Source: Flavobacteriales bacterium | GTDB lineage: Bacteria > Bacteroidota > Bacteroidia > Flavobacteriales > Flavobacteriaceae | Direction: 5' to 3' | Length of the DNA stretch: 38,573 bases | NCBI GenBank assembly: GCA_004214185.1 | Contig: SGZG01000012.1 | Location: forward strand, 1-38,573 | Shown: positions 19,647 to 34,955 of the stretch, one piece after another | Layout of the letters: each line of letters begins with the position of its first letter | Numbering within the stretch: the first letter of the stretch is position 1 | Position numbers and translations under genes: made by a program | The notes under the pieces: model-generated | What the model was told of the DNA's origin: nothing | Databases searched by the model: none | What the model saw: the letters and a program-made list of their open reading frames with translations, nothing else

Positions 19647-19678
19647 AGCTGTATGGCATGAAACTTGAATATTTATTA

Positions 19679-19710
19679 TATAGTTAAAATAGCTACAGTA
19701 TAGTTAAAAT
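19679..19710 (+). repeat. Two 12-base direct repeats upstream of lon
   Basis: TATAGTTAAAAT occurs at 19679-19690 and again at 19699-19710, with start-to-start spacing of 20 bases (about two helical turns). They lie about 64-95 bases before the lon start codon in a 127-base intergenic region. This layout suits a dimeric regulator on one face of the DNA, but the repeats are AT-only apart from one G, so chance is possible. Confidence 0.5.
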
Positions 19711-19773
19711 TTTTTCAGAGTAGATTACCCTTAATTATTTTGATTACCTGACATTTTGACTTAATTTATATTT

Positions 19774-22227
19774 ATGTCTAAAACTAAAATCTTAAATCTT
19801 GACATGATGTCATTGCAGAATATTGATGAAGATTCTGATTTAATTCCGTTAATGACCTCTGATGATGAAGAAGCAATTTCAAAAGAATCTCTTCCTGATA
19901 CCCTGCCAATCCTTCCTTTAAAGAATACTGTGATGTTTCCTGGAGTTGTAATTCCAATAACAGCATCAAGAGATAAGTCTATTAAATTAATAAAGGATTC
20001 TAACAAAAAAGATAAGTTAATTGGTGTGGTTTCTCAAATAGATTCTAAAGTTCAATCTCCAACACTAAGTGACATCCATCCTACAGGTACTGTTGCTAAA
20101 ATTTTAAGAGTTTTGAAAATGCCTGATGGAAATGTTACAGTTATAATTCAAGGCAAAAAAAGGTTTTCAATTGAGCAAATAACTTCTGAGGATCCATATA
20201 TTACTGCTAGAATAAAGGAAATTCAAGAATTAAAGCCTGAAAAAAATGATAAAGAATTCAGTGCTACTATTGAATCAATTAAAGACATTGCACTAAAAAT
20301 AATTGATGAAAACCCTAATATTCCTAGTGAAGCTTCTTTTGCTATAAAAAACATACAAAGTGACTCTTTTTTAGTCAACTTTGTATGTTCAAATATGAAT
20401 TTGAGTGTTGAGGAAAAATACAAAATTTTAAATACTAGTGATTTGAATAAAAGAGCTTTAATGTGTTTAAAGCAAATGAATGTTGAGCTTCAAAGACTTT
20501 CTTTAAAAAATGATATTCAGTCAAGAGTAAGGTCTGATTTAGATCAACAACAAAGAGAATATTTCTTACACCAACAATTAAAAACAATTCAAGAAGAACT
20601 TGGAGGTGTTTCTTATGATGAAGAAATCAGTGAAATGAGAGTTAAATCAAAAAAGAAAAAATGGTCAAAAGATATTGGTAATCACTTTAAAAAAGAATTA
20701 TCAAAATTACAAAGAATGAATCCTCAGGTTGCTGAATATTCTATACAAAGAAATTATTTAGATATCTATCTTGAATTACCATGGAATGAGTATTCTAAGG
20801 ACAATTTTGATTTAAAAAGAGCTCAAAGAGTATTGGATAGAGATCATTATGGTCTAAAAGATGTGAAAAAAAGGATTATTGAATATATAGCAGTTTTAAA
20901 ATTGAGAAATGACATGAAATCCCCAATTTTATGTTTAAATGGTCCACCTGGAGTTGGTAAAACCTCTTTAGGTAAATCTATAGCTGAAGCTTTGGGTAGG
21001 GAGTATGTTAGAGTTTCACTAGGTGGTTTAAGAGATGAATCTGAAATTAGAGGACATAGAAAAACTTATATTGGAGCGATGCCTGGAAGAATTATACAAA
21101 GTTTAAAGAAAGCGAAAACTTCAAACCCTGTATTTGTTTTGGATGAAATTGATAAATTATCAACTGGAAATCAAGGTGATCCATCATCTGCAATGTTAGA
21201 AGTTTTAGATCCTGAACAAAACACTTCGTTTTATGATAATTTCCTTGAATCAGGATTTGATCTTTCAAAAGTAATGTTCATTGCTACTTCAAATAATATT
21301 GCGAATGTACAACCTGCTTTAAGAGACAGAATGGAAATTGTTCAAGTTTCAGGATATACTGTTGAAGAAAAATATCAAATAGCAAAAAAACATTTGATTC
21401 CTAAGCAAATAAAAGACCATGGTTTGGAAAATAACATCATAAAAATTAATAAAAAATCAGTTGAAAAGATAGTTGAAGGATATACAAGAGAATCTGGAGT
21501 TAGAGGCTTGGAAAAACAAATATCAAAAATTGTGAGAAATACTGCTAAATCCATAGCAATGTATGAAGCTTATTCAAAAAACATATCTCTAGAAGATATA
21601 AATGAAATATTAGGTGTTTCAATAACTAAAGAAAAGTATGAAAATAATGACATAGCTGGTGTTGTTACGGGTCTTGCATGGACTCAATTTGGTGGTGATA
21701 TATTATTTATTGAATCTGCATTATCTAGAGGTAAAGGAAATTTATCAATTACTGGAAACTTAGGGAAAGTAATGAAAGAATCAGCCACTATAGCTTTGGA
21801 ATATATAAAGTCAAATGCAAATGAATTATCAATAGACGTTGATCTATTAACCAAACACAATATACACATTCATGTCCCTGAAGGTGCAACACCTAAGGAT
21901 GGACCTAGTGCTGGAATTACAATGCTTACATCTTTAGTTTCTTTGTTAACTCAGAAAAGAGTTAAGTCAAAATTAGCCATGACCGGTGAAATTACTCTTA
22001 GAGGAAAGGTCCTTCCAGTAGGAGGAATTAAAGAAAAAATATTAGCAGCAAAAAGAGCAAAGATTACCAGTATAATTTTATGTGAAGAAAATAGAAAAAA
22101 TATTGAAGAAATTGATCAAACTTATTTAAAAGGCTTAACTTTCCATTATGTATCATTTATGAAAGAAGTTTTAGAAATTGCAATCACTAATAAAAAAGTA
22201 AAGAATTTTAAAAAGTTGAATGTCTAA
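19774..22227 (+). CDS. lon: ATP-dependent endopeptidase La (Lon)
   Basis: Cytoplasmic AAA+ serine protease degrading misfolded and regulatory proteins. An N-terminal substrate-recognition (LAN) domain begins at [15 protein letters not shown] (about residue 45). The AAA+ module has Walker [12 protein letters not shown] and Walker [10 protein letters not shown]. The C-terminal protease domain shows the catalytic Ser in [11 protein letters not shown] and Lys in [12 protein letters not shown]. 817 residues is normal, with a short acidic N-terminal extension (about residues 12-40) that is common in Bacteroidota Lon. It overlaps cmk by 8 bases, so lon-cmk are co-transcribed. Upstream direct repeats may regulate it. 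Confidence 0.97.
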
Positions 22228-30945: not shown

Positions 30946-31635
30946 CTATTTAACACATAGATTCCAAATGGTATCTTTAGGTGGACAAGCAATTAAACAA
31001 ATTTTGTTCTTTGTAACTGGGTGAGTGAATTCTATTTTTCTAGAATGCAGATGAATACTTCCATCATTATTAGGTCTTTTAAATCCATATTTTAAATCTC
31101 CTTTTATTGGATATCCATAATTAGATAGTTGTGCTCTAATTTGGTGATGTCTTCCTGTTTCTAATGATATTTCTAGAAGAGAATACTTGTCAAGGGATTT
31201 TATTTTTTTAAAATTTAAAATTGATTTTTTACCATTTTTAATATCTGTAGTAACAAATGATTTATTTTGTTTTTCGTTTTTTTTAAGAAAATTTTCTAGT
31301 CTAATAATTTTATTGCTGTCTATTTTTTTTGTTATTGCCCAGTATGTTTTTTTAACTTTTTTTTCCTTGAACATATTATTAACTCTTGTTAAGGATTTAG
31401 AAGTTTTACAGAATATGATTATCCCACTTGTTGGCCTATCTAATCTATGTGTTATTCCCAAATATACATTTCCAGGCTTATTGTATTTGTTTTTTAGATA
31501 ATATTTTATTGAATCCGCGAGAGTAGTATGACCTGTCCTGTCACCTTGGGATAATTCACCTGGATTCTTATTTACTATAATTAGATGATTGTCTTCAAAT
31601 AAAATTCTTTCAAATCTAAATTTAGTATTGTTCAT
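30946..31635 (-). CDS. RluA-family RNA pseudouridine synthase
   Basis: Converts uridine to pseudouridine in rRNA or tRNA. The catalytic aspartate is D66 in [36 protein letters not shown] is the conserved C-terminal motif (residues RHHQIRAQL). At 229 residues it is a compact single-domain member with no N-terminal S4 domain. The target site cannot be inferred. It overlaps panB by 14 bases and is probably co-transcribed from the panB promoter. Confidence 0.9.
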
Positions 31636-32434
31636 TTTCGTTTGGAAAATCTAAATTTTTTACATCTTTAATGTAATTTTTGATTGCTTGAGTCATTATT
31701 TCATTTAGGTCAACGTATCTTCTTAAAAATCTCGGATTAAATTCAGTACTTAAACCAACTAAGTCATGTGTAACCAAAACTTGACCATCAACATCTGGTC
31801 CAGCTCCAATACCAATAACTGGGCAAGAAACACAAGAGGTAACAATTTTTGAAATTTTTGCCGGAATCTTTTCAAGAACAATACCGAAACAACCTAACTT
31901 ATCCAAAAGTTTAGCATCTTCAATCAGTCTTTCAGCTTCTTCTTCTTCCTTTGCCCTTACTGTGTACGTTCCAAACTTATATATTGACTGAGGAGTTAAT
32001 CCTAAGTGTCCCATAACAGGAATTCCAGCATTTAAAATTCTAACTATAGATTCTTTTATTTCTGAGCCGCCTTCCATTTTAACTGCATGAGCTCCAGATT
32101 CTTTCATAATTCTAATTGCAGATCGTAGTGCTTCTCCGGAATTTGATTGATAGCTCCCAAATGGTAGATCTACAACGACTAATGCCCTTTCAACACCCCT
32201 AACAACTGAGGATGCATGATATATTATTTGATCTAAAGTTATAGGTAATGTGGTTTCATGTCCAGCCATAACATTTGATGCTGAATCACCAACAAGAATA
32301 ATGTCTATTCCAGAGTTATCTATAATTTTAGCCATCGAATAGTCGTATCCAGTTAACATTGAAATTTTCTCTTGACGAGTTTTCATTTCCTTCAACGTGT
32401 GAGTTGTAATCCTTTTATATTCTTTATTTGACAT
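31622..32434 (-). CDS. panB: 3-methyl-2-oxobutanoate hydroxymethyltransferase PanB
   Basis: First step of pantothenate synthesis, adding a hydroxymethyl group from methylene-THF to 2-oxoisovalerate, which is also the LeuA substrate. [32 protein letters not shown], the VKMEGG segment, [20 protein letters not shown] and a catalytic Glu in LEKIPAKIS are present, then [18 protein letters not shown]. 270 residues. Divergent from dnaK. Confidence 0.96.
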
Positions 32435-32449
32435 TATGTTATTTTTTTA

Positions 32450-32457
32450 CAAATGTA
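32450..32457 (-). promoter_or_regulatory. Candidate -7 promoter element for panB
   Basis: On the - strand the sequence reads TACATTTG, an exact TAnnTTTG, 15 bases before the panB ATG. No clear TTG at the ideal upstream distance. It shares a 116-base divergent spacer with the dnaK promoter. Confidence 0.45.
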
Positions 32458-32480
32458 AATTTATTTTCAAACTAATATAC

Positions 32481-32520
32481 TGACACACTGTCATATGTAT
32501 AAGATTGGCATAATCATTGA
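32481..32520 (+). promoter_or_regulatory. dnaK promoter region: dyad plus sigma-54-like element
   Basis: A perfect 13-base dyad TGACA-CAC-TGTCA lies at 32481-32493. Downstream, TTGGCAT (32505-32511) and TTGA (32517-32520) resemble a -24/-12 sigma-54 promoter: GG is followed after ten bases by GA instead of GC. If used, the start would be near 32532, giving a leader of about 20 bases before the dnaK ATG. No TAnnTTTG element is visible on this strand and no CIRCE element is present. The assignment is an inference. Confidence 0.45.
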
Positions 32521-32550
32521 AAAAACATAAATAATTATAAATTAAAAATA

Positions 32551-34467
32551 ATGAGTAAAATAATTGGTATAGATTTAGGAACAACAAATTCTTGTGTTTC
32601 TGTTATGGAAGGTAATGAACCTGTTGTAATTCCAAACGCGGAGGGTAAAAGAACAACCCCTTCTGTTATTGCTTTCGTTGAGGGCGGTGAGATAAAAGTA
32701 GGTGATCCAGCAAAAAGACAAGCAGTTACAAATCCAACAAAAACTATTGCATCTGTAAAAAGATTCATGGGAAATAAATTCAGTGAATCTAAAAAAGATG
32801 CAGAAAGATCTGCTTACAAGGTAGTTAAAGGTGACAATGATACTGCTCGTGTTGACATAGATGGAAGGCTATATACTCCTCAAGAATTGTCTGCAATGGT
32901 ACTTCAAAAAATGAAAAAAACTGCTGAAGATTATTTGGGTACAACTGTAAGTGAGGCAGTTATTACTGTACCTGCGTATTTTAATGATGCTCAAAGACAA
33001 GCAACTAAAGAGGCAGGAGAGATTTCTGGTCTTAAAGTTCAAAGAATAATAAATGAGCCAACTGCTGCTGCACTTGCCTATGGTCTCGACAAGTCTGGAA
33101 AAGATCAAAAAATTGCTGTTTATGATTTAGGAGGAGGAACATTTGATATTTCTATCTTAGAGCTTGGTGACGGTGTTTTTGAAGTTTTATCAACTAACGG
33201 TGATACAAGATTAGGGGGTGACGATTTTGATGAAGAAATCATAAGTTTTTTAGCTGATGATTTTAAAAAGAAAGAAGATATTGATTTAAGAAAAGACCCA
33301 ATGGCTCTTCAGAGACTAAAAGAAGCAGCTGAAAAGGCTAAAATCGAACTTTCTTCTTCTACACAGACAGAAATTAATTTACCATATATAACTGCAACCG
33401 CTTCAGGTCCAAAGCATCTTGTTTTGACCCTGACCAGATCAAAATTTGAACAATTAACAAGTGATTTAGTAAAAAGATCTATGGAGCCAGTAAAAAAGGC
33501 AATTGATGATGCTGGATTAAGCATCAAAGAAATTGATGAAGTTATTCTAGTTGGTGGTTCAACAAGAATTCCTATCATTCAAGATAAAGTCGAAAAGTTT
33601 TTTGGAAAAAAACCTTCAAAGGGTGTAAATCCTGATGAAGTAGTAGCGATCGGAGCTGCTATACAAGGTGGTGTTTTGACTGGAGATGTTAAAGATGTTT
33701 TACTTTTGGATGTTACTCCATTATCACTAGGAATTGAAACTATGGGTAGTGTCATGACTAAATTGATTGATGCAAACACAACAATTCCAACAAAAAAATC
33801 TCAAGTTTTTTCAACTGCAGCCGACAATCAACCTTCCGTTGAAATTCATGTTTTACAAGGTGAAAGACCAATGGCTAAGGATAATAATACTATTGGAAGA
33901 TTTCATCTTGATGGAATTCCACCCGCTCCAAGAGGAACTCCTCAAATTGAAGTGACTTTTGATATAGATGCTAACGGTTTAATACATGTCACAGCAGCTG
34001 ATAAGGCAACTGGAAAGACTCAAGATATTAGAATTGAAGCTTCATCTGGACTTTCTGAAGAAGAAATTGAAAAAATGAAAAAAGAGGCTGAAGCAAATGC
34101 TGAATCAGATAAAAAAGCGAAAGAAGAAGTAGATACATTAAATAGCGCTGATGCTATGATTTTTCAAACGGAAAGTCAACTTAAGGAATATGGAGACAAA
34201 ATATCAGATGACAAGAAAAAAGCTATTGAAGATGCACTTGGTGTTCTGAAAAAAGCTCATGAAGGTAAAGATATTGAAGCTGTCAAAACTGCTTTAGATG
34301 GAATCAATGAAGCATGGAAAAATGCTTCAGAAGAACTTTATAAAGCTCAAGCAGAAGCTCAACAAGCAAGTGGAGCAGCTGGTGGATCAGCAGAACCTGA
34401 AGCAAGTCAAAAATCCAAAGACAATTCTGATGATGTTCAGGATGTAGATTTTGAAGAAGTCAAATAG
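32551..34467 (+). CDS. dnaK: Molecular chaperone DnaK (Hsp70)
   Basis: ATP-dependent chaperone. The nucleotide-binding domain has [36 protein letters not shown] and [11 protein letters not shown]. The hydrophobic linker [13 protein letters not shown] leads into the substrate-binding domain, with a helical lid ending in a glycine/alanine-rich tail and the conserved acidic C-terminus [11 protein letters not shown]. 638 residues is normal. No dnaJ or grpE is adjacent. Monocistronic between its own promoter region and a strong terminator. Confidence 0.98.
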
Positions 34468-34490
34468 ACTAAAGGTTTTTTAAATAAATA

Positions 34491-34522
34491 AAACGCATTA
34501 GTACTCTAGTGCGTTTTTTTTT
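34491..34522 (+). terminator. Intrinsic terminator after dnaK
   Basis: An 11-base stem (left arm 34491-34501, right arm 34506-34516, containing one G-U pair, loop TACT) with ACGCA/TGCGT at its base is followed directly by a run of nine T. It lies 24 bases past the dnaK stop. Confidence 0.85.
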
Positions 34523-34535
34523 ATATTTATGAGAT

Positions 34536-34955
34536 ATGGATAAAAAAAATATATTAGAAAAAATCAACTCAGCAAATAAAAACACCTTAATGGAAACTTT
34601 AGACATTGAGTTTGTTGATATTGGTAAAGATTTTTTGGTAGCTAAAATGCCAGTCACATCTAAAGTGTATCAGCCTGATGGTGTTTTACATGGTGGTGCT
34701 ACTGTTGCACTTGCAGAATCAGTTGGTAGTGCAGTATCTTATATGTCAGTTGATTATATGAATCAAACCATAAGAGGAATTATTATTTCTGCAAATCATT
34801 TAAAAAGTGTTAAAGAAGGATATGTATACGCAAGGGCCACACCAATTCACAAGGGGAGATCAACACAACTTTGGGAGATAAAAATTACTGATGATAATAA
34901 CAATTTAGTTTCTCACTGTAAGCTATCTACCATGGTTTTAAATAAAAATAATTAA
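34536..34955 (+). CDS. PaaI-family hotdog-fold acyl-CoA thioesterase
   Basis: A 139-residue single hotdog domain of the PaaI/MenI/EntH group. The motif YQPDGVLHGGATVALAESVGS contains the HGG turn and the LAE glutamate expected to act as catalytic base. RGIIISANHLKSVKEG and HKGRSTQLWEIKI follow. Relatives hydrolyse aromatic or 1,4-dihydroxy-2-naphthoyl-CoA (menaquinone pathway), but no men gene is adjacent, so the substrate stays open. Followed 2 bases later by the CPBP gene. Confidence 0.87.
   Translation: MDKKNILEKINSANKNTLMETLDIEFVDIGKDFLVAKMPVTSKVYQPDGVLHGGATVALAESVGSAVSYMSVDYMNQTIRGIIISANHLKSVKEGYVYARATPIHKGRSTQLWEIKITDDNNNLVSHCKLSTMVLNKNN

What the first reader, a model, noticed from the sequence alone, without database searches (positions are those of the whole stretch)
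32480..32520. Dyad and sigma-54-like promoter in front of dnaK
A perfect TGACA-N3-TGTCA dyad sits about 20 bases upstream of TTGGCAT-N5-TTGA, which is one base off the GG-N10-GC sigma-54 pattern. The Bacteroidota do not use the proteobacterial sigma-32 system and no CIRCE element is seen here, so this could be the heat-shock control region. I recall similar arrangements before chaperone genes in flavobacteria, but cannot verify them here.
Basis: partly seen in the sequence, partly recalled or inferred. Interest (0 to 1): 0.5.

Follow-up and report, generated by a model that had tools for sequence, protein, structure and literature searches.

The report
Sigma-54 heat-shock promoter before dnaK
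The DNA in front of the dnaK chaperone gene looks like a sigma-54 promoter with a nearby activator-binding site, and the same two-part signal sits before several other chaperone genes in flavobacteria and some relatives, which points to a shared stress switch whose activator has not been proven.

Summary
TGACA-N3-TGTCA (32481-32493) lies 12 nt before TGGCAT-N5-TTG (32506-32519). Of 81 dnaK upstream regions, 81 keep TGGCAY-N5-TTG and 71 a TGNCA-N3-TGNCA dyad 10-14 nt above it. A generalised 39-bp pattern has 74 exact matches in 296 phylum genomes, 0 reversed, before grpE (32), htpG (18), dnaK (16), hsp20 (2), thioredoxin (5); one is unassigned. Displaced dyads (gaps 23, 33, 43, 54, 64) follow a 10.5-bp helical repeat in register with gap 12, suggesting an activator facing RNA polymerase.

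The genome has rpoN and two strong sigma-54 activator candidates; only the groES-linked one has an HTH, so it is the likely binder (inferred).

Sigma-54 starts at dnaK, groES, grpE, htpG and lon are in print for Flavobacterium psychrophilum (PMC9723704). I saw no mention of the dyad, phasing or its activator; supplements were not read. A 345-kb endosymbiont-like genome keeps rpoN, this activator type and sigma-54-like chaperone promoters. Binding and heat induction are untested.

The parts
32481..32493 (.). Dyad TGACA-CAC-TGTCA, proposed activator site, centred near -45; general form TGNCA-N3-TGNCA (each half is itself TG.CA)
   Evidence: TGACA-N3-TGTCA with at most 1 mismatch in 71 of 81 dnaK upstream regions, 64 of these at gap 12
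32506..32519 (+). Sigma-54-type -24/-12 element TGGCAT-AATCA-TTG (GG at 32507-32508, G of -12 at 32519; the next base is A, not C)
   Evidence: TGGCAY-N5-TTG in 81 of 81 dnaK upstream regions
32532..32532 (+). Predicted transcription start (inferred by setting G32519 = -13); leader about 19 nt
   Evidence: inference from the -24/-12 geometry; not mapped in this organism
32551..34467 (+). dnaK (Hsp70, 638 aa), the gene controlled
   Evidence: PF00012, E 1.7e-263
31622..32434 (-). panB, divergent neighbour; not thought to be the target
   Evidence: PF02548, E 5e-111; panB is next to dnaK in 19 of 80 loci, while 51 loci without it next door have the dyad at gap 10-14
19654..19667 (+). Sigma-54-type element TGGCATGAAACTTG before lon
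   Evidence: TGGYA-N7-TG in 30 of 30 lon upstream regions, 0.66 expected in shuffles
19749..19761 (.). Dyad-like TGACATTTTGACT in the lon leader, downstream of the promoter element and 25 nt before the ATG
   Evidence: such a motif within 70 nt of the ATG in 21 of 30 lon regions; 0.015 expected in shuffles
19774..22227 (+). lon protease gene (817 aa), likely co-regulated
   Evidence: PF05362, PF02190

Best explanation
The element is a sigma-54 (RpoN) promoter with a promoter-proximal, helically phased activator site. It belongs to a protein-quality regulon of Flavobacteriales and, partly, the wider class: dnaK, grpE-dnaJ, groES-groEL, htpG, hsp20, probably lon, and thioredoxin in some lineages. 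RpoN-RNA polymerase would sit closed on TGGCAT-N5-TTG. A dimer or hexamer of an AAA+ activator would bind TGNCA-N3-TGNCA on the same face of the helix, usually centred near -45 and otherwise one or more whole turns further up, and open the promoter by ATP hydrolysis. The best candidate is the receiver-less sigma-54 activator encoded between miaB and lptE-secG-groES-groEL. Shown by computation: the element, its conservation, phasing and gene specificity; presence of rpoN; and that the groES-linked protein is the only strong activator candidate with an HTH match in this assembly. Inferred: that this protein binds the dyad, and that it is freed or made when unfolded protein occupies chaperones, as PspF is freed from PspA (recalled).
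For: 81/81 dnaK regions with TGGCAY-N5-TTG; dyad with at most 1 mismatch in 71/81, gap 12 in 64 of those. Strict pattern in 27 genomes (26 chosen among the dnaK loci plus this one): 20 have exactly one match, 7 none, reversed control 0; all 20 matches are the dnaK ones. Looser pattern with at most 1 mismatch in 40 genomes: 93 matches, reversed control 2; of 63 exact ones, dnaK 19, htpG 19, grpE 18 and hsp20 3 by tblastn, plus grpE 1 and thioredoxin 1 by reading, 2 undetermined. Phylum sample of 296: 74 exact matches, control 0, genes as in the summary. Hsp20 and thioredoxin were not looked for and came out of the pattern; both confirmed by Pfam on examples. Phasing: 17 gene-by-lineage displaced gaps, V = 0.91 at 10.5 bp, 0 of 1,000,000 random sets as good; the period scan peaks at 10.5. 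rpoN in 39 of 40 genomes, this one included. A strong PF00158 match lies 1.5-3.4 kb from groES in 34 of 39 genomes with groES; in 6 copies aligned the HTH is nearly identical, one from the 345-kb genome. Published start mapping in F. psychrophilum (PMC9723704, passages).
Against: The base after the -12 G is A or T in most dnaK promoters; TTGC in only 5 of 81; grpE does better, C in 19 of 30. A site centred at -45 is much closer than usual enhancers of this class (recalled: about -80 to -150). The dyad is not universal before dnaK: in a second set of 21 genomes, 19 have -24/-12 but 6 the gap-10-14 dyad (3 of 3 same genus, 2 of 3 same family, 1 of 15 other families of the order), and 11 of 21 a dyad anywhere in 250 nt. 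groES 0 of 27 and lon 0 of 30 have it at gap 10-14. Only 17 of 37 genomes of the class outside the order, and 2 of 223 outside the class, have an exact match. The lon dyad keeps its distance to the ATG, not to the promoter. No strong activator match is listed near groES in 5 of 39 genomes (G005, G028, G032, G035, G036). No binding or heat experiment; in F. psychrophilum the reported induction is by blood agar, osmolarity, plasma and freshwater.
Confidence: 0.75

Rival explanations
1. Same sigma-54 promoter, but the dyad is bound by a different, unidentified activator, possibly together with the receiver-AAA+ protein beside grpE-dnaJ.
For: No binding data. The second strong PF00158 protein (L164 3380-4543) lies beside grpE-dnaJ in this genome and near grpE in others of the genus. 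The assembly is only 82.8% complete.
Against: The second activator has no HTH match and ends after the AAA+ lid, and its sigma-54 contact loop reads GAFTSA. The 345-kb genome has only one strong PF00158 match, the groES-linked one, yet keeps dyads before groES and grpE.
Confidence: 0.15
2. The dyad is the operator of a heat-shock repressor (HrcA-like logic) placed over an ordinary or sigma-54 promoter.
For: Palindromic site next to the promoter in front of chaperone genes, the usual picture for HrcA, CtsR or HspR (recalled).
Against: No CIRCE in the window with up to 3 mismatches. Sites as far as 64-76 nt above the promoter keep helical phase, which a blocking repressor does not need. HrcA itself was not searched.
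Confidence: 0.06
3. TGGCAT-N5-TTG is a variant of the primary-sigma promoter (TAnnTTTG) and the dyad is incidental.
For: The TA...TTG letters overlap loosely with the -7 box.
Against: GG and its spacing to TTG are invariant in 81 of 81. In F. psychrophilum the dnaK, groES, grpE, htpG and lon starts were assigned to the -24/-12 motif and not to the TAnnTTTG motifs (PMC9723704, passages).
Confidence: 0.03

Closest known systems
Sigma-54 (SM4) regulon of Flavobacterium psychrophilum (PMC9723704; passages read)
   Same: Mapped starts with a -24/-12 motif at groES-groEL, lon, dnaK, grpE-dnaJ and htpG, in one co-expression cluster (B254)
   Different: In the passages read there is no dyad, phasing or assigned activator; it says the three PF00158 proteins might be distinct activators. 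Here: other species, the dyad, its phasing and a candidate activator
Genome-wide sigma-54 promoter prediction (PMC12316311; passages and part 2 of 3 of the reference list read)
   Same: Predicts DnaK, DnaJ, GrpE, GroES and GroEL as enriched sigma-54 targets, strongest in Flavobacteriia, and cites sigma-54 dependence of grpE and groES
   Different: The words 'palindrom' and 'upstream activat' occur 0 times; no site or activator is assigned in the passages read
PspF-type receiver-less bacterial enhancer-binding proteins (recalled; NCBIfam PspF models match below cut-off)
   Same: AAA+ domain with GAFTGA loop and C-terminal Fis-type HTH, no receiver match
   Different: Linked to groES-groEL, longer linker with a conserved LYKxLFxMxxDLNxLK stretch, target sites close to the promoter
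HrcA/CIRCE and sigma-32 heat-shock control (recalled)
   Same: Control the same chaperone genes
   Different: No CIRCE here; activation by sigma-54 instead of repression or a sigma-70-family factor

Membership tests
Sigma-54 (-24/-12) promoter | GG-N10-G at -24/-12 with fixed spacing | tested here: met
   81 of 81 dnaK upstream regions
Sigma-54 (-24/-12) promoter | C after the G of the -12 element | tested here: not met
   Window has TTGA; TTGC in 5 of 81 dnaK promoters. In grpE promoters C in 19 of 30, A 5, T 4, no element 2
Sigma-54 (-24/-12) promoter | RpoN encoded in the genome | tested here: met
   PF04552, G000:C56:37251-37727, E 1.5e-49; 39 of 40 genomes searched
Sigma-54 (-24/-12) promoter | Start site mapped about 12 nt below the -12 element; transcription lost without rpoN | not testable with these tools
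   Only indirect: mapped dnaK start with this motif class in F. psychrophilum (PMC9723704)
Activator (enhancer) site of a sigma-54 activator | Dyad upstream, position constrained by helical face | tested here: met
   10.5-bp phasing of 17 displaced gaps in register with gap 12
Activator (enhancer) site of a sigma-54 activator | Location roughly 80-150 bp upstream (recalled) | tested here: not met
   Centre near -45 at dnaK; about -77 at groES of this genus (computed from gaps)
Activator (enhancer) site of a sigma-54 activator | Cognate activator with AAA+, GAFTGA and HTH present | tested here: met
   L163 4171-5415: PF00158 and HTH_8, GAFTGA. That it is the cognate one is inferred
Activator (enhancer) site of a sigma-54 activator | Activator binds the dyad | not testable with these tools
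   no binding data
HrcA/CIRCE | TTAGCACTC-N9-GAGTGCTAA before chaperone genes | tested here: not met
   0 matches with up to 3 mismatches in the window, which of the heat-shock genes named here holds dnaK and lon
HrcA/CIRCE | hrcA gene present | not tested
Sigma-32 (RpoH) heat-shock control | rpoH gene and its promoter type | not tested
   not searched

The most novel reading that the evidence does not exclude
Flavobacteriales and part of the wider class run their core chaperone genes through a dedicated sigma-54 heat-shock circuit. A receiver-less AAA+ activator encoded next to groES-groEL is held inactive by free chaperone, or by another partner, through its conserved linker. When unfolded protein accumulates it binds TGNCA-N3-TGNCA a few helical turns from the promoter. 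This circuit, and not nitrogen control, is why rpoN persists in tiny flavobacterial endosymbiont genomes.
Probability: 0.45. Interest if true: 0.78.

Novelty: new variant of a known kind. Interest (0 to 1): 0.64.

Why it matters
How this group controls its heat-shock genes is, in the papers I saw, only partly described (a sigma-54 motif without an activator). Here a cis element, its geometry and one candidate activator make it directly testable: delete the groES-linked activator or shift the dyad by half a turn. The evidence also reframes the retention of rpoN in flavobacterial insect endosymbionts, described as unusual and tentatively linked to nitrogen (PMC3971599, passages). In the 345-kb relative, groES, lon and dnaK keep recognisable -24/-12-like elements, grpE a degenerate one, and groES and grpE keep the dyad.

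Tried and rejected
Rejected: CIRCE; a sigma-70-type promoter (9 found in 32300-34700, 8.6 expected by shuffling; none on the + strand in the dnaK upstream region); panB as the target (51 of 80 loci have the dyad at gap 10-14 without panB within 500 nt). The strict pattern alone suggested a dnaK-only element. Allowing any letter in the middle of each half (TGNCA) showed htpG, grpE, hsp20 and thioredoxin.

Led nowhere: start mapping in B. thetaiotaomicron (PMC7366714, passages): 'rpon' and 'dnak' occur 0 times. One exact match (L363) has no recognisable gene. The source cited for sigma-54-dependent grpE and groES (Sabree 2009) is not held. Not searched: hrcA, rpoH, clpB upstream regions as a set.

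Rows dropped before counts. groES: 27 of 30 loci parsed by the script. htpG: 28 of 30 loci entered, 1 of these without a start, 27 counted. Phasing: the 19 groES values of one genus were entered once, one of two equal Flavobacterium dnaK values was left out, only upstream sites were used (lon excluded), and the gap-6 pairing in L143 was left out of the main test and included in a second one with the same result, 0 of 1,000,000. The choice of independent values was made by hand. In the 93-match list the Pfam check covered one hsp20, one secA, one lemA and one thioredoxin; the second secA and the clpC were named by reading. Of the five thioredoxins of the phylum sample two were checked by Pfam, three read. 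Match rows and linkage coordinates were copied by hand from tool outputs; the tallies by kinship were counted by hand. The match list is cut at weak matches.

Full report
OBSERVATION. The gap from the end of the dyad to TGG is 12 nt. Setting the G at 32519 to -13 puts GG at -25/-24, the start near 32532 and the dyad centre at -45 (inference). The perfect dyad is found at two places in the 1.38-Mb, 82.8%-complete genome, control 0. The 39-bp combination occurs once in the window with up to 2 mismatches, 0.03 expected.

CONSERVATION BEFORE dnaK. One scan gave 80 dnaK loci, whose record titles name flavobacteria or other Bacteroidetes (the best 80 of 569 were kept by the tool). With the window, 81 of 81 upstream regions have TGGCAY-N5-TTG. 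TGACA-N3-TGTCA with at most one mismatch is in 71, at gap 12 in 64, 13 in 5, 11 in 1 and 33 in 1. With the looser dyad TGNCA-N3-TGNCA, 71 of 81 have it at gap 10-14, and 77 of 81 keep at least one half-site there; block shuffles gave 0.000 for the combination. These loci are related and not independent; panB is the upstream neighbour in 19 of 80, and 51 loci without it have the dyad at gap 10-14. Against this, in a second set of 21 genomes 19 have -24/-12 but only 6 the gap-10-14 dyad: 3 of 3 of the genus, 2 of 3 of the family, 1 of 15 other families of the order. So the exact gap-12 dyad before dnaK is mainly a feature of the family, while the promoter element is broader.

OTHER GENES. In this genome the arrangement precedes htpG and hsp20 (gap 12; hsp20 by Pfam), grpE (TGACATTTTGGCA, gap 13) and groES (TGTCAGACTGTCA at gap 44 plus TGTCA at the gap-12 place). 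Over the genomes sampled: grpE 24 of 30 and htpG 19 of 27 at gap 10-14; groES 0 of 27 there, but 20 of 27 with a half-site there and 19 of 27 with a dyad at gap 42-45. lon has -24/-12 in 30 of 30 and no dyad at gap 10-14; 21 of 30 have a dyad-like motif in the leader, downstream of the promoter element, about 25 nt from the ATG in most of the 21. That constant distance to the ATG is not explained by my reading.

GENOME-WIDE SPECIFICITY. The pattern TGNCA-N3-TGNCA-N12-TGGYA-N6-TTG with at most 1 mismatch in 40 genomes gives 93 matches; the reversed pattern gives 2. Of 63 exact ones, tblastn places 19 before dnaK, 19 before htpG, 18 before grpE and 3 before hsp20. By reading, one more is grpE cut by a contig end and one is thioredoxin (Pfam); two are undetermined, one with 36 nt left before a contig end and one not fetched. 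Of 30 with one mismatch, 18 are before hsp20 (11), grpE (3), groES (2) and htpG (2), 2 more lie at grpE by coordinates, 4 precede secA (2), clpC and lemA, and 6 look like chance. In a sample of 296 genomes of the phylum, exact matches occur in 54 genomes, control 0: own genome 1 of 1, same family 28 of 29, same order 6 of 6 (all one family), same class 17 of 37, other classes 2 of 223 (tallied by hand). All 74 matches were examined: grpE 32, htpG 18, dnaK 16, hsp20 2, thioredoxin 5, unassigned 1 (69; 5 already known). Thioredoxin and hsp20 were not looked for; they came out of the pattern.

HELICAL PHASING. Where the dyad is not at gap 10-14, the upstream gaps are 23, 33, 34, 42-45, 54, 63, 64 and 76, plus one ambiguous 6. 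Entered once per gene and lineage (17 values, chosen by hand), they agree with a 10.5-bp repeat in register with gap 12: V = 0.91, none of 1,000,000 random sets as good, and a period scan peaks at 10.5. Adding the gap-6 pairing leaves 0 of 1,000,000. This fits a protein that must face RNA polymerase, hence an activator, better than a blocking repressor.

ACTIVATOR. rpoN is present in 39 of 40 genomes including this one. The genome has two strong PF00158 matches among 6. One, 387 aa beside grpE-dnaJ, has a receiver and AAA+ domain, no HTH match and GAFTSA in place of GAFTGA. The other, 414 aa, has no receiver match, has GAFTGA and a Fis-type HTH, and lies in the order miaB (named by reading; radical-SAM and TRAM domains), activator, lptE, unnamed ORF, secG, groES, groEL. 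A strong PF00158 match lies 1.5-3.4 kb from groES in 34 of the 39 genomes with groES, and none is listed there in G005, G028, G032, G035 and G036; only six of the linked proteins were read in full. In those six the HTH is nearly identical, and a linker stretch (LYKxLFxMxxDLNxLK) is kept too. It is therefore the best candidate for the dyad-binding activator. That it senses chaperone availability is a guess from its build (no sensor domain found, like PspF) and its linkage.

A TINY RELATIVE. G039 (one contig, 344,793 bases, same order, unnamed, endosymbiont-like by size) keeps rpoN and one strong PF00158 match, the groES-linked type. groES has TGACATTATGTCA at gap 23 (in phase) before TGGCATATTTTTGG. 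grpE has TGTCAAAATGACA before a degenerate TTGCATAAATTTTGC, and lon has TGGCATAACTATTGTG. dnaK has GGGCATGATGATTG without a dyad. The 39-bp pattern itself has no match in G039. PMC3971599 (passages) calls retention of RpoN in such symbionts unusual and suggests a nitrogen role; chaperone control is an alternative.

WHAT IS KNOWN. PMC9723704 (passages) mapped starts with a -24/-12 motif at groES-groEL, lon, dnaK, grpE-dnaJ and htpG in F. psychrophilum, and left the activators open. It also lists a start for a probable sigma-54-dependent regulator and lptE, 3.3 kb from the groES start. PMC12316311 (passages) predicts the same chaperone targets by weight matrix, strongest in Flavobacteriia. In searches of the held library (listings seen) and the passages read, I saw no description of this dyad, its phasing or its activator. 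Supplements, most subscription papers and preprints were not available, so it may be described there.

VERDICT. The sigma-54 part is known in a relative. The phased dyad, the chaperone and thioredoxin set, the candidate activator and the endosymbiont link are what this work adds, all by computation.

Noticed in passing
window 19654-19812: lon: -24/-12 element at 19654-19667, dyad-like TGACATTTTGACT at 19749-19761 in the leader, and a perfect dyad TGACATGATGTCA inside the coding start at 19800-19812. The leader motif keeps about 25 nt to the ATG in most relatives that have it, while its distance to the promoter varies from 73 to 120 nt.
   Followed up: partly
L164:3380-4543 (G000:C2): A receiver plus sigma-54 AAA+ protein beside grpE-dnaJ has no HTH match and a GAFTSA loop in place of GAFTGA; the G015 copy (L112) also reads GAFTSA and ends the same way. 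Role unknown.
   Followed up: partly
L353; L423-L427: Thioredoxin genes carry the same dyad plus -24/-12 arrangement in one genome of this genus and in five of the phylum sample.
   Followed up: partly
L363: One exact 39-bp match with no recognisable gene downstream.
   Followed up: no
window 32429-32441: One-mismatch dyad TGACATTATGTTA overlapping the panB start codon, 39 nt from the dnaK dyad.
   Followed up: no
window 34490-34517: Terminator-like hairpin with a T run just after dnaK.
   Followed up: no
G001:C21:4485-4952: A second, weaker rpoN-like match in a relative (E 4.0e-40), possibly contamination (listed 4%) or a paralogue.
   Followed up: no
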